Source of the DNA: Perkinsus chesapeaki
Taxonomy: Eukaryota; Perkinsozoa; Perkinsida; Perkinsidae
Length of the DNA: 64,000 nt
Assembly (NCBI GenBank): GCA_013115145.1
Contig: JAAPAO010000028.1
Span: forward strand, 21,335-85,334
Reading direction: 5' to 3'
Part shown: positions 37,036 to 59,248 of the stretch, in pieces
Layout: each line of letters begins with the position of its first letter
Numbering within the stretch: the stretch's first letter is position 1
Position numbers and translations under genes: made by a program
Notes under the pieces: model-generated
Seen by the model: the letters and a program-made list of their open reading frames with translations, nothing else
Told to the model about the DNA's origin: nothing
The model's database searches: none

Positions 37036-39542
37036 ATGGCCTCTGCCACTTCTACCTTTCATCACCAGACAGGTGCCCCACCAGGTACGGGGCCTGGGGG
37101 GAAGAGGGCTCCTCAGGTGAGGCTCCATTTCAAAGCACAGAAATTGGGGTTCTATCGGTATGTAGTATCACAGCTATATGGAGATGGGCTCACTGACGAG
37201 GCAAAGTCCGTCGCCACCAGACTTAATCTAACGTTACCAGTGGAGCCAACAAACGAGGAGAATGATGACGGTGGCAACGCCGCCGGTGGAGACGGCACAG
37301 AGCTTGGTGGGGGGGCTATAGAGAAGGATTTCCTGTATGATGTGTATGCGGACAGCATTAGAAGGCAGGAGAAGGGCTTCGAGGCTGGCACCTGGAAGCC
37401 TATCAAATGCCGACCATATCCACCTTTATCAGCTCACGAGGAGCATCTAGATCTTAGAGTCAGCTACGATGAGCGATTACAAGGACAGTTGGAGGCGGAG
37501 GGAAGGGACCAACCGTTCAAGGAGAAGGAGCTGGATGAGATGGACTTGGATGATGACGATCTAGATGACGCTCCTAGAGGGGAGACTTATGAGGAGGATA
37601 TGATCACTGAGGAGGCTAAAAGGGTTACGAGACCAACGCCAGTGGTAAGTGATAGTTTTTGGTGGATACTACCCTATATTCAACATAGGAGGAAGAGGAT
37701 ATAGCGTTGTTGAGGGGGGACATGGCGATACTACTAGCGCCTAGTTGATACGTTGGTGGAGAATGAAATTTATAGAAATTACTGTCGGGCATTTTATGGA
37801 TGGCAAGTGGCTATATTGTAACTGAGGAGGGTCCATAGATATCCCAATACCTTTATAGCTCTTTAAAGCACTTTGAGGTCCTCCTCCTGCTGGTCCTCAC
37901 CTTAAGAGCATTCTTAGAGAGTATTTACCTCATTTGGAGCCCAGTAGGAAAACCTGCCTGTTATAGGTTCGCTTGAGGTTCACCACCCAGCACAAGAAGG
38001 AGGTCCGCTGCGTTGCCTTCAGTCCAGATGGGCGACTGTGTGCATCTGGTTCAACTGATACCTCTATTAAAGTGCTTGAGACTGCCAAGATGCGTATGCA
38101 TGCGGTAGCCGGTGGAGATGCGGCATTGATGAGAGGAGGAGAGAGAGATGATGGCCTAAGGCCAGTCGTCAGGACCTACTACGACCACGTCGGAACTGTC
38201 ACGAGTGTTTCATTTCATCCGAGGCAACCGATACTGTACTCGGGCAGCTACGACAAGTGAGCTTCTGCTGCTACTGCAGCTGGCCAGACGGTGCTGTTTT
38301 TATAAAGTGTTTCAGGACACTGAAGATATATGATTTGACCAAACCACACCAGAACAAGCGTGCTCAGCATAATGTTGTCGACGTAAGGAGGAGGAGCTGC
38401 TAGAAGGATGATGGCTCCTCTTTATTAACCTCATCATCAGATGTATCCTATTAATAAAGTGCAAGTCCATCCCTGTGGCGACTTTGTATATGTCGGCACG
38501 CTACACAGAGTCATCCGCCTGTACGACACGAGAACGCTGCAATGCTTTTCGGCCTATTATGGTGGAGCTTCTGGTATCGGCGGTGGAGGCGGCCAGCATC
38601 ATAATGGCAGCGTAAGTATCTTAAATTCTCCGTAGTGCGAAAGATACGCGTATCTTTGCAGGTTCTCGACATCGCATGTGCGAGCGATGGTAGCGTGTTC
38701 GCCTCTGCCGGCAGTGATGGTAGGCAGCGATGATAATTCCGTCACGCGCCACGAAATGTCTTAGGTCACGTGCATATCTGGGATGGTGTATCCAATCGTC
38801 TAATCAACAAACTCCATGGTGCACCGGGAAGCGGTGGATCGCTGATGAAGCCTCACTCGGGCCACCCAGTGTTCACAGTTCAATGGAGTCGTAATTGCCG
38901 ATACCTCCTTACTAGTGGAGGGGACCATAGAGCTCGACTGTGGGATATGAGGACTGGGAAGGAGCTGTTGGTCTATTCTGGAGCAACCACATCGACAGAC
39001 TGTTCTTTTATGACCGCCACTTTTGCTGGGAATGAACAGTAGCATGGCCGTCACCGCGCCGGGAAATTATTCTCTTTTGCAGATACATTGCAACGAGCTC
39101 TTCGAGGATCGGCGAATCTGATATGTGTCTGATAGACTCCCTAACAGGTGCTCATCATCATACCGCCTCCGCCACTGAGTTGTCCCGTTTGTGTTCACGT
39201 CTTGCGTCTTAGGGGAGGTTTTGGTTCCAGCAGTGGGAGGCCATTCCATCCCAGTCAGAGCTGTCGCCGCCTCTCCTGTTGATAAGACTATCATTACTGG
39301 TGAGTAACTGCTGCCGTTTCGCACTGTGAAGATTTGGTATCTTGTTGTTAGGTTGCGATGACAATAAAGTGAGGTTCTTTGATATTGTTAAAGGCACTAA
39401 GAATATGTACCGACGCATTTTGTACGCTTTCTGCCAGATGACATTGTGCTCAGATATGAGATGGAGGAGGAGGGCATCACAGGAATATCTCAGAGCCAAG
39501 CCGCTGCTGGCATGGAGATGGACGAGACTGGTGCAGCTGTGA
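37036..39542 (+). CDS. CSTF1: Cleavage stimulation factor subunit 1 (CstF-50), WD40 protein
   Basis: The exons are 37036-37644, 37967-38256, 38316-38382, 38441-38611, 38662-38719, 38765-39038, 39083-39147, 39213-39299 and from 39352. CstF-50 is the WD40 subunit of the mRNA 3'-end cleavage factor. The N-terminus (QKLGFYRYVVSQLYGDGL) matches the family dimerisation segment, then an acidic linker and WD repeats: TSIKVLETAKM, RTYYDHVGTVTSVSFHP, VRLYDTRTLQCF-type strand, VHIWDGVSNRLINKL, ARLWDMRTGKELLVYSGA and CDDNKVRFFDIV. The last is about where human CstF-50 ends. Beyond it, one frame stops at 39542, while another (39446-39621) encodes an acidic, Ala-rich stretch, so the C-terminus is unresolved. 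Three introns (38612-38661, 38720-38764, 39039-39082) carry cores shared with other genes. Confidence 0.92.
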
Positions 39543-40107
39543 TGCCATCCGAGCAGGGAGCAACCACTGCTGCTGCGGCGGCGGCGGCGAGGGGTAAGGG
39601 AACAAGGGCAATGCTGGGAGTGGTAAGTTCTTCATTGTTAGGGTTTGTTGAACACATCGGCACTTAGTGGATAACGTTTCATCCATATCCTTGTTTCGTT
39701 CATACCTATGCAATGCTGTGCGGGTGGAAAAACAAGAGTCACGCACCACGAAATTGTCAAGACGCTTTGTCTTATCCGGCCTTGATTTTTCTGATGTGAA
39801 TGCCAACGCCGAAGTGGAATTGTAAAAGATACGAAGATTGGTTATTGTATCGTTACGCCTTGGTTTCGAAACTGGCCTAACCAATGTACTCCACAGTGGT
39901 AAAGGGAGACTGTGCGCGCGTGCAAGAATCGGCGTCACCAGCTGACGTCACCGCGAAAAGGCTTCTCCTTCCACTCCTCCTTTCCTGCGCGCATTGAGCT
40001 AATGCTGTGATTGTCGCTGGGGGTTAGATAGTTGTGAAGATAACTGTGAAGAGCAGTGTGGATGTTATTAGTGTTTGGGGTGTAGGAATTAGTTCCAGTG
40101 ATTGTAG
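39543..40107. other. Region downstream of CstF-50
   Basis: This contains the end of an Ala/acid-rich alternative frame (to about 39621) followed by a donor-like GTAAGT, and another copy of the TCACGCACCACGAAAT core at 39739-39754. No separate gene is recognised. Confidence 0.4.
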
Positions 40108-57351: not shown

Positions 57352-57655
57352 CTAAAACAGCGATAATAAATCATAAAAACCACTTCACAACAGTGAGAAA
57401 AAATACACCGTAGACGGACGAGGACGAGTAAGGTAGGTTACCGATGTCAGTGATGCATACGTTGAAGTGATGATAGTCCCTATACCCTTACTACCATGGT
57501 TCAATCCTCGCTGCGACTGAGAGATAAAGGCTTGGAATAGCGTATCAGAGCTCAAACGATCACGTGGGCGAGCGAGATATCTTGCAGCGGAGCGAAGCTC
57601 TCGCGTTGCACGTTTGCCATTTTCAGCGGTCGTGCTAGTGTTGCTCGTTTTTGCC
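57352..57655. promoter_or_regulatory. Shared divergent region between RPL11 and the kinase
   Basis: RPL11 (minus) and the kinase (plus) are transcribed apart from this 300-bp region, which should hold both promoters plus the missing first exon of RPL11. No specific motif was identified. Confidence 0.4.
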
Positions 57656-59248
57656 ATGACTGGGACAACTTCACCGTCGTCTGGAGCTGCTGTTATTGAA
57701 CCTTCTAGTGAGTGGCCTACTACCACTGAGGGTTATCATCTTGAGTGTCCCATAGGATATGGCGCTTTTGCTACAGTGTAAGTCGACGGTATCTTAGCTT
57801 CAAGCGCGACTTTGGCGACCGAAACCGAAATCTTTGCTTTATTTCGCCGTAGTAGAGCTCATTTGACAGGTACAAAGCCTCTGTGGTGACAGGAGCACAT
57901 TCAGGTGAGCCTGTTGCGATAAAAGTGATCGATCTAGAGTGCTTGGATGGCACCACTTTCGATGATATACGCAAGGAGCTACAAGTGATGCGAATGTGTA
58001 CCCATCCGAATGTACTACCTTACAGTCGGCCTACCAACTTGACTATTATCATATATTAGGTTATTACGTACCACGCTGCATTCTCGTCGCCTGATGCTAA
58101 GATGTGGCTGGTCATGCCGCTTATTAATGGCGGATCCTGTCAAAATGTCATTAGGGAATACAAGAAAAGGACCGGTCATAGTATACAGGTAGGACTCAAT
58201 CACCGACTACTACCAGCATCAACCGCCATGGCTACTCAGAACATCGGCATTATCGCTTATATCCTACACGAGACCGCACTGGCTCTCCGCCACTTCCATT
58301 CAAACCAACAAATTCATCGAGATCTCAAAGCTGGCAACATTCTGCTCAGTCTAGACGGCAAAGTGTAATGCCCTCTTTCTTGCTCATTCATCCGCATTCC
58401 TCCTTTACAGTTATTTATCTGACTTTGGTGTTTCGGCTTCCATGAGGGACTCTAGATCTCGGCAGACCTTCGTTGGCACCCCGTGCTGGATGGCCCCCGA
58501 GGTGCTGGAGCAAAGCAAAAACGGGTAGTAATGGGCGATGGAAATATCAATTTATATTATCGTAACAGATATGATTATAAAGCCGATATCTGGTCATTCG
58601 GTGTAACCGCTTTAGAGCTTGCCAACGGTAGTGCTCCTTATCAGAATTTGCATCCGTTGAAGGTAGGGATGGAGGGTATCTTTCGCACTATAAAGAATTT
58701 TAATAGGTCATGAAAAATATCTTGGAGAATCCCCCGCCGACCTTGGAGCGCACTAAAGATTCACCATGGGATTCTTCTTTTGTTAAAATGGTCGCAGATT
58801 GCCTCCAGAAAGATCCTAGCAAACGGTGAGTATCTTAGGTTGATGCGTGCTCAATACATATATTTCAGGCCATCAATTGATCAACTCCTCACCCGACATG
58901 ACGCGTTTTTCCGCCAGGCAGACAAGCAGGCCCTCGTGGATTTATTAAAGACATTGCCAACAATAGAGCAGCGAGAGCCCACAAAACCTCCAGGGTCAGC
59001 AGCCGCCGCACAATCCTGTCGTTTCCCCCACCTCACCATTCCATCAGATACCGATCTCCGAGGGCCCCGAAGGTCCGCACCGGCTTCAGTGGTGCAGTCA
59101 GTGGCGCCTGGGATTTTGATTTGGTAATTTTCCGTAATTTTTCCCGGAAATATTTCTTCATCTTCAGCACGATTCCGACAGTGATGATGACGATAAAGAT
59201 GACAGTGATTCCGGTATTTTTTCGGAGTTGGGTGAAGAGGAGACCTGA
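57656..59248 (+). CDS. Ste20-family protein kinase, OSR1/SPAK (Fray) type
   Basis: The exons are 57656-57777, 57870-58011, 58060-58364, 58411-58524, 58569-58662, 58707-58825 and 58869 onward. Kinase motifs in order: glycine loop IGYGAFATVYKA, VAIKVIDLE (ATP Lys), LVMPLINGGSC, IHRDLKAGNILL, SDFGVSAS, TFVGTPCWMAPEVLEQ, YDYKADIWSFGVTALEL and CLQKDPSKRPSIDQLL. These are intact and typical of OSR1/SPAK. The frame from 58869 ends at 59127; a likely last exon in another frame (59204-59248) encodes an acidic tail DSDSDDDDKDDSD. I saw no PF2-type C-terminal domain. Introns 57778-57869, 58663-58706 and 58826-58868 contain cores shared with other genes. Confidence 0.9.

What the first reader, a model, noticed from the sequence alone, without database searches (positions are those of the whole stretch)
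38612..58868. Introns of unrelated genes share exact cores: candidate introner-like elements, family B
A 24-nt core starting AGTGCGAAAGATACG is identical in a CstF-50 intron (38634-38657) and a cyclotransferase-like intron (54808-54831), and is palindrome-like (GATACGCGTATC). A 13-nt reverse-complement piece lies in a kinase intron (58677-58689), a 9-nt piece in another CstF-50 intron (39317-39325), and TATAGTGCG in Rpn10 introns. A 24-nt exact match in 64 kb is not expected by chance, and every copy found is intronic. Mobile introns (introners) that seed many small introns are known in some protists; here the core would be about half of a 50-nt intron. Mobility is inference.
Basis: partly seen in the sequence, partly recalled or inferred. 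Interest (0 to 1): 0.8.

Follow-up and report, generated by a model that had tools for sequence, protein, structure and literature searches.

The report
Short palindromic motif shared by introns
In a Perkinsus-like protist, a 25-base near-palindromic DNA motif recurs in about two hundred places and is several times denser in predicted tiny introns than in unannotated DNA; only the motif is shared, not the whole intron, so it looks more like a binding site than a copy-and-paste intron.

Summary
The 24-nt core is a 25-nt exact repeat, and the kinase 'piece' is a 23-nt match on the other strand. Both belong to an imperfect palindrome, RAAATCTTYANAGTGCGMAAGATAC: 209 matches with up to 2 mismatches against 12 for the reversed control in a 35.4-Mb Perkinsus-like genome. 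Six of 7 window copies lie in short introns. Of 102 independent held copies, 37 fall in predicted short introns, against 11% of random places, or 13.5% with a core dropped in; 9 are in open frames. Similarity stops at the 25-bp core (flanks 25% identical), no target-site duplication shows, and no copy lineages stand out. None of 102 arm changes is compensated, which disfavours an RNA hairpin. Best reading: a dyad-symmetric DNA-protein site kept mainly in gene bodies. Against it: inside tandem arrays the core is no better conserved than the spacer. Family D shares the GTATCTT end and is also intron-rich.

The parts
29241..29290 (+). intron in RPC1 (RNA polymerase III largest subunit); family B core 29254-29273 (+)
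   Evidence: core; RPC1 domains and homologues; intron
38612..38661 (+). CstF-50 intron; core 38626-38645 (+); the 25-nt exact repeat is 38633-38657, four bases short of the intron end
39300..39351 (+). second CstF-50 intron; core 39314-39333 on the minus strand (3 mismatches)
54785..54835 (+). intron of a gamma-glutamylcyclotransferase-like gene (51 nt, GTTGGG...TTAG); core 54800-54819 (+); 25-nt exact repeat 54807-54831
   Evidence: frame GYPG|RYER; the automatic classifier prefers a 39-nt form from 54797; Pfam GGACT only below cut-off
58663..58706 (+). intron of an OSR1/STE20-like kinase gene; core 58678-58697 on the minus strand; 23-nt match to 54799-54821
62433..62478 (-). intron of an Rpn10-like gene on the minus strand; core 62446-62465 (-), 3 mismatches
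   Evidence: Pfam silent
32406..32425 (+). weaker core (ATCTTCAGCGTGCGCAACAT, 2 mismatches); context ambiguous, overlaps a predicted 3' splice site
53705..53720 (+). partial core (AAATCTTCACAGTGCG), context unassigned
30020..30076 (+). RPC1 intron with a copy of related family D (GTATCTTAGCTTCAAGCTTGCAAGATGC)
57778..57869 (+). kinase intron 1 with a family D copy (57789-57805)
58826..58868 (+). kinase intron with a family D copy (58830-58846)
38720..38764 (+). CstF-50 intron with a copy of family A (CACGCGCCACGAAA, 38743-38756)

Best explanation
Family B is a short, dyad-symmetric DNA site of about 25 bp recognised by a DNA-binding protein or complex, not an intron that copies itself. Shown: it is sharply bounded. 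The central AGTGCG and the ATCTT/AAGAT arms are unevenly, position-specifically conserved. It sits in introns in either orientation. Extra GTATCTT half-sites gather around it. It is rarer in open frames than random places are, and densest in predicted introns (mostly 40-60 nt), where it takes up about half of the intron. Inferred: a factor binds the two half-sites from opposite sides (the same GTATCTT half-site also ends family D). Sites are kept in gene bodies, where introns are the main non-coding room. The cellular role (chromatin, replication, recombination or transcription control inside genes) is not known from these data.
For: Sharp edges: columns -2 to 22 carry about 30 bits (my sum of the listed columns) and the columns beyond are near 0. 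Conservation is uneven: positions 10-14 depart in 0-3 of 102 copies, position 18 in 25 (chi-square 82.1, 15 df, p 2.8e-11); uniform decay of dead copies would not give this, although copies were found with an up-to-2-mismatch search. Flanks random (5.08 and 5.16 of 20) and not rising with core identity except in the top bin of 32 pairs; of 171 column pairs the strongest links are local (7-8 z 10.3, 18-22), with a few distant ones near z 3. No compensatory change in 102 arm departures. Introns hold it in both orientations, 22 to 15, p 0.32. GTATCTT in the flanks of 92 copies: 21 against 8.7 expected, p 3e-4; the other arm AAATCTT (7 against 6.3) and AGTGCG (8 against 9.3) are not enriched. Density 1.35 per kb in called introns, 0.23 in unannotated and 0.15 in exon DNA; introns against unannotated odds ratio 5.8, p 6.5e-8. 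Not a gene-finder artefact: cores dropped on 700 unannotated places gave 7 intron calls, shuffled cores 6. An exact coding copy in a RibD gene was not inserted: its peptide aligns without a gap to P. olseni and to 7 of 8 other RibD proteins. Neighbouring copies are hardly more alike than others: 17.1 (8 pairs) against 16.2 of 20.
Against: Inside tandem arrays the core is not better conserved than the spacer: 0.040 against 0.042 (C271), 0.114 against 0.048 (C402), 0.205 against 0 of 30 (C727, 2-base spacer), 0.160 against 0.062 (C144, coding); the other arrays gave no usable comparison. About 30 bits is long for a protein site and is inflated by the mismatch cut. A classical transcription-factor site should favour intergenic DNA over downstream introns. 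No binding protein is identified. Two window introns share ten more bases beyond the core, GCGTATCTTT, ending two bases before the AG, which looks like descent. Pairs of loci within 20 kb number 8 against 2.8 expected, three of them on this contig. Gene calls come from my own codon model without RNA data; its final version finds only 4 of 8 hand-spliced kinase introns.
Confidence: 0.45

Rival explanations
1. Miniature mobile elements that seed or colonise introns. The 25-bp dyad itself is the copied unit, inserts in either orientation, and borrows splice sites from its surroundings, or it lands in existing introns that then shrink back to normal length.
For: About two hundred matches; strong intron enrichment; both orientations; at least six tandem arrays with unrelated spacers; no excess conservation of the core over the spacer within arrays; three of the four copies between 38626 and 58697 (38626, 54800, 58678; not 39314) share a T at position 1 that only 14% of 102 copies have, and two share an extension almost to the 3' splice site.
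Against: No whole-intron similarity, no target-site duplication, uneven conservation, no copy lineages. The kinase intron removes no residue: 10 of 10 relatives from P. olseni to animals and fungi align without a gap across it, so it did not recruit exon sequence. B introns are not longer than other introns (noisy). The RibD coding copy is not an insertion.
Confidence: 0.27
2. An RNA-level element: the transcribed core folds into a stem-loop that helps splice very short introns or is bound by a splicing factor.
For: The arms can pair on either strand; several introns bring the dyad close to the 3' splice site.
Against: 102 arm departures, none compensated (the 3-mismatch limit penalises double changes). 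No significant orientation bias. Many copies lie outside called introns. No Rfam match in the window at gathering thresholds.
Confidence: 0.08
3. A by-product of mutation: near-palindromic sequence that is prone to local duplication or templated copying during break repair, with no function and no dedicated mobility.
For: Tandem arrays, in which the core is no better conserved than the spacer.
Against: Does not explain why one particular sequence recurs on unlinked contigs with position-specific conservation.
Confidence: 0.12
4. Chance sharing.
For: None.
Against: 209 against 12 genome-wide; 7 against 0.52 in the window.
Confidence: 0.01

Closest known systems
Introners (Gozashti et al. 2022, PMC9860276; abstract, part 1 of Results, one Methods section and passages read)
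   Same: Similar sequence in introns of many unrelated genes, either orientation, aquatic protist; some published families carry neither splice site
   Different: Introners are defined there by similarity reaching near both splice sites and many families show TSDs; here only a central 25 bp is shared and no TSD is seen. 'Perkinsus' does not occur in the main text; its supplements were not read
Introner elements of Amoebophrya (PMC7789003; passages read)
   Same: Alveolate relative, inverted repeats inside introns
   Different: Those were described mainly in non-canonical introns, with 8-20 nt inverted repeats between the two intron ends and 3-5 nt direct repeats at the boundaries; here the introns were called as GT-AG, there is no boundary repeat, and the dyad is short and internal
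Long bipartite protein-binding sites such as those of CTCF, REST or Su(Hw) (recalled, from no call)
   Same: 20-26 bp, position-specific conservation, random flanks
   Different: No binding protein known here; unusually intron-rich; near dyad symmetry
Short palindromic dispersed elements, e.g. Rickettsia palindromic elements and yeast mitochondrial GC clusters (recalled, from no call)
   Same: Short, palindromic, dispersed, occasionally in coding frames

Membership tests
[quoted passage not shown]
   102 independent copies: conservation ends at columns -2 and 22, flanks 25% identical; definition read. Because these introns are so short the core often comes within 10-15 bases of a splice site, but the rest is not similar
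Introner (Gozashti 2022) | at least four similar introns in non-paralogous genes | tested here: met
   37 of 102 copies in called introns; 10 of 10 searched gene pieces match only themselves
Introner (Gozashti 2022) | target-site duplication (common, not obligatory) | tested here: not met
   no excess of direct repeats for k 3 to 8 at the core; k 2 marginal (1 of 60 permutations) and inside the core; none at splice boundaries of 37 introns
Introner (Gozashti 2022) | terminal inverted repeats (common, not obligatory) | tested here: inconclusive
   imperfect dyad ATCTT/AAGAT bounds the core, not the intron
Introner (Gozashti 2022) | presence or absence of the intron in relatives | not testable with these tools
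   no relatives' DNA held (notes); only proteins of P. olseni and P. marinus found
Amoebophrya introner elements | direct repeats of 3-5 nt over exon-intron boundaries | tested here: not met
   boundary match at background for offsets -8 to 8 in 37 introns
MITE / non-autonomous DNA transposon | TIRs plus TSD around a shared body | tested here: not met
   shared body is 25 bp only, no TSD
Structured RNA element | compensatory changes in the stem | tested here: not met
   0 of 102 arm departures still pair; no Rfam family in the window
Protein-binding DNA site | bounded motif with position-specific conservation and random flanks | tested here: met
Protein-binding DNA site | core under stronger constraint than neighbouring sequence | tested here: inconclusive
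   genome-wide pattern yes, within tandem arrays no; limited by ascertainment and by sample size
Protein-binding DNA site | a protein that binds it | not testable with these tools
   no binding data

The most novel reading that the evidence does not exclude
The 25-bp dyads (family B, with its cousin D that shares the GTATCTT/AAGATAC ends) are the smallest known intron-seeding micro-elements in a nuclear genome. They copy themselves in either orientation, carry no splice sites, and have supplied the middle of many of the tiny introns of Perkinsus.
Probability: 0.2. Interest if true: 0.85.

Novelty: new variant of a known kind. Interest (0 to 1): 0.5.

Why it matters
If the introns of this parasite are filled with a few recurring dyad sites, then either the sites explain how tiny introns are gained (a long-standing question), or gene bodies of Perkinsus carry an unrecognised set of protein-binding sites. 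Both can be tested by comparing orthologous introns in public Perkinsus assemblies. It also warns that shared 20-25 nt cores alone are not proof of introners.

Tried and rejected
Introns copied as whole units: rejected, flanks random. TSDs: none. RNA stem: no compensation. Gene duplication as the cause of similar introns: rejected for 10 of 10 gene pieces. Viral origin: an exact scan of IMG/VR gave 15 matches, which I judge to be about the chance level (my estimate, no control run). Local copying: neighbours only slightly more alike than random pairs (17.1 against 16.2 of 20, 8 pairs). A first hexamer gene finder missed CstF-50 introns and invented others; a codon version found 7 of 8 kinase introns; retraining with free intron lengths drifted and lost all eight; the final model is conservative and finds 4 of 8. 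An early comparison that left B-selected copies in the intergenic control was blurred (19 of 261 non-B introns against 18 of 281 intergenic segments for the pooled families); the recount by bases, B apart, is. Intron length comparison with a flat prior was too noisy to carry weight. A scan for 6-base inverted repeats in general showed little (728 against 596). The RPC1 protein search could not name the organism, probably because full-length relatives exceed its length limit.
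Full report
What the window is. It lies in a 35.4-Mb, 884-contig eukaryotic genome. A hand-spliced STE20/OSR1-like kinase from the window is 94% identical to a Perkinsus olseni protein over 84% of its length and 81% to a P. marinus protein over 88% (the P. marinus model lacks one stretch and aligns at 93% elsewhere). A RibD protein from another contig is 80-82% identical to P. olseni. So this is Perkinsus or a very close relative, probably not P. 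olseni itself (inference). Introns called by my gene finder, which assumes GT-AG ends and favours lengths near 47, are mostly 35-60 nt; of the eight hand-spliced kinase introns seven are 43-51 nt and one is 92.

The observation. The reported 24-nt core is a 25-nt exact repeat (38633-38657 and 54807-54831). The kinase intron shares 23 nt with the cyclotransferase-like intron on the opposite strand. 33 merged 15-mer repeats more than 100 bases apart occur in the window, a few of them local duplications, against 2-6 pairs in five Markov simulations. The pattern ATCTTNNNAGTGCGNAAGAT has 7 window matches with up to 3 mismatches against 0.52 expected; 6 of the 7 lie in short introns of RPC1, CstF-50 (two), a cyclotransferase-like gene, the kinase and an Rpn10-like gene. 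The kinase protein runs without a gap across its motif intron in an alignment with 10 relatives, among them P. olseni, P. marinus, Chromera, Capsaspora, Saprolegnia, a Mortierella and a fish. The spliced CstF-50 reads in frame and matches PDB 6b3x. RPC1 was identified by Pfam and homologues. The cyclotransferase-like and Rpn10-like names rest on weaker evidence.

Genome-wide. AGTGCGAAAGATACG has 11 exact matches, reversed control 0. The fuller pattern has 129 matches with up to 2 mismatches against 4 when A is written at position 15, and 209 against 12 when that position is free. I held DNA around many but not all of these: 55 loci (3 kb each, some overlapping) and 46 short stretches. In the held DNA 133 copies with up to 3 mismatches had enough flank to be classed; collapsing tandem arrays leaves 102 independent copies.

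Anatomy. The 102 copies share only columns -2 to 22: RAAATCTTYANAGTGCGMAAGATAC, about 30 bits by my sum, inflated by the mismatch cut-off. Flanks are at 5.08 and 5.16 of 20 identities, the random level, and rise only in the top bin of 32 pairs with near-identical cores, which includes pairs from one array. Of 171 column pairs tested the strongest links are local (7-8, 18-22); a few distant pairs reach z about 3. Departures from the consensus are very uneven: 0-3 of 102 at positions 10-14, 25 at position 18; chi-square 82.1, 15 df. Of 102 departures in the five arm pairs none is compensated; the cut-off of three mismatches makes double changes harder to see, so this is strong but not absolute. 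GTATCTT occurs in the 60-bp flanks of 92 copies 21 times against 8.7 expected; the other arm and AGTGCG are not enriched there.

Where copies lie. With the gene finder (codon usage and splice signals; no RNA data), family B has 20 copies in called introns, 25 in unannotated DNA and 8 in exons, or 1.35, 0.23 and 0.15 per kb; introns against unannotated: odds ratio 5.8, p 6.5e-8. A local classifier puts 37 of 102 independent copies in short introns, 9 in open frames and leaves 56 unassigned, against 440, 998 and 2562 of 4000 random places. With B cores dropped on 2000 random places the classifier introns, so the core raises false calls only a little (odds ratio of real to dropped 3.7, p 1.7e-8). 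The full gene finder called 7 introns at 700 dropped cores and 6 at shuffled ones. In introns the orientation is 22 S to 15 A. The final gene finder finds 4 of 8 hand-spliced kinase introns, so absolute fractions are rough, and the unannotated class contains missed genes.

Against introners. The published definition requires similarity to near both splice sites; beyond the core there is none. No direct repeats are found at the core for k 3-8 or at the splice boundaries of 37 introns; k 2 is marginal (1 of 60 permutations) and lies inside the core. Ten B-bearing gene pieces found only themselves in the genome, so gene duplication does not explain the sharing. An exact core sits in coding sequence of a RibD gene as RILRTAKILR. 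Three named P. olseni proteins have RILRTAKILR or RIMRTAKILR. Of 8 other RibD proteins aligned (mostly unnamed, one from Actinosynnema), 7 have no gap within the motif peptide (6 of these are one residue shorter just after it) and one has a 4-residue insertion; none lacks the roughly 8 residues that an insertion would have added. So that copy arose in place; it could also be a coincidence.

For mobility. At least six tandem arrays with different spacers exist (C83, C271, C402, C372, C727, C23). Where core and spacer could be compared within an array the core is not better conserved: C271 0.040 against 0.042, C402 0.114 against 0.048, C727 0.205 against 0 of 30, coding C144 0.160 against 0.062. 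This speaks against constraint there. Of 71 loci with at most one mismatch, 8 pairs lie within 20 kb against 2.8 expected, three of them on this contig; their cores are 17.1 of 20 identical against 16.2 for all pairs. Two window introns share ten further bases beyond the core, ending two bases before the AG; this was the best right-flank match outside arrays among 5151 pairs, and 32406 with L051 an equally good left-flank match.

Other families. Four more patterns recur: A CACGCGCCACGAAA, 752 against 4; C CTGACACCTCTAGCTA, 430 against 26; D GTATCTTAGCTTCAAGC, 335 against 1, whose copies often extend to RTATCTTAGSTTSAAGCRTGCAAGATRC and so share the GTATCTT/AAGATAC ends with B; E AATCGATCANNNGATCGATT, 658 strand-matches against 0, palindromic sites counting twice. 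By bases, D is enriched in introns over unannotated DNA (odds ratio 4.4, p 0.0013), A weakly (2.7, p 0.042), C not significantly (2 intron copies), E, E2 and the tRNA T-arm-like H not; all families without B together give 2.2, p 0.0012. The intron bias is thus strongest in B and D and not a property of every such motif.

Judgement. The finding is real, the introner label is not earned, and the best reading is a long dyad-symmetric DNA site kept mainly in introns. Papers: Gozashti 2022 read in abstract, part 1 of Results, one Methods section and passages; the Amoebophrya genome paper in passages; others seen only in search listings. In the held library Perkinsus with introner gave only the Amoebophrya paper; Perkinsus, introner and intron gain none; Perkinsus, introns and palindromic three papers, none on this by title. 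Most subscription papers and all preprints are outside that library, so a prior report elsewhere is possible.

Noticed in passing
window 27691-27707 and 38742-38758; genome-wide: Family A, CACGCGCCACGAAA (longer form GTCACKGCGCCACGAAATTA), 752 genome matches with up to 1 mismatch against 4 control; several copies sit in predicted 37-61-nt introns in either orientation.
   Followed up: partly
window 30020-30076, 57778-57869, 58826-58868; genome-wide: Family D, RTATCTTAGSTTSAAGCRTGCAAGATRC, shares its GTATCTT/AAGATAC ends with family B and is also intron-enriched.
   Followed up: partly
genome-wide; e.g. L012 15-36, L035 2554: Family E: palindrome AAATCGATCA-N-TGATCGATTT, 658 strand-matches against 0 control, plus a hybrid E2 in which the same half-site is followed by GGGCGMGCGC; several sites on some contigs (C59, C74, C83) and not intron-enriched.
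   Followed up: partly
window 19425-19440, 24460-24475, 32690-32703: Family C, CTGACACCTCTAGCTA, three window copies and 430 genome matches with up to 2 mismatches against 26 control.
   Followed up: no
window 33445-33494, 54478-54532 (by eye), 49089-49150 (first gene finder only); L035, L037, L047: Short predicted introns or other non-coding stretches that hold a tRNA T-arm (GGTTCGAWCC with its stem) without an evident full tRNA, in either orientation; a possible trace of tRNA fragments becoming introns. Two of the listed hits (L015, L023) look like real tRNA genes by eye.
   Followed up: partly
L016 (C83), L072 (C271), L076 (C402), L111 (C372), L114 (C727), L086 (C23): Tandem arrays of the B core with periods 38, 49, 31, 47, 27 and 20 and unrelated spacers; the 49-base C271 unit contains a 47-base stretch that starts with GT and ends with AG.
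   Followed up: partly
L015, L019, L026: The main coding copies lie in acidic low-complexity protein regions and read in one frame as ENLxSAKDT, with related repeats beside them in L015 and L019.
   Followed up: no
P0122 (P. marinus kinase model): The public P. marinus kinase model lacks the stretch holding the activation loop (YLSDFG...), probably a gene-model error.
   Followed up: no
window 57235-57319: ARAGORN reports a tRNA-Ala on the minus strand inside a predicted protein gene (56734-57739); probably a false call.
   Followed up: no
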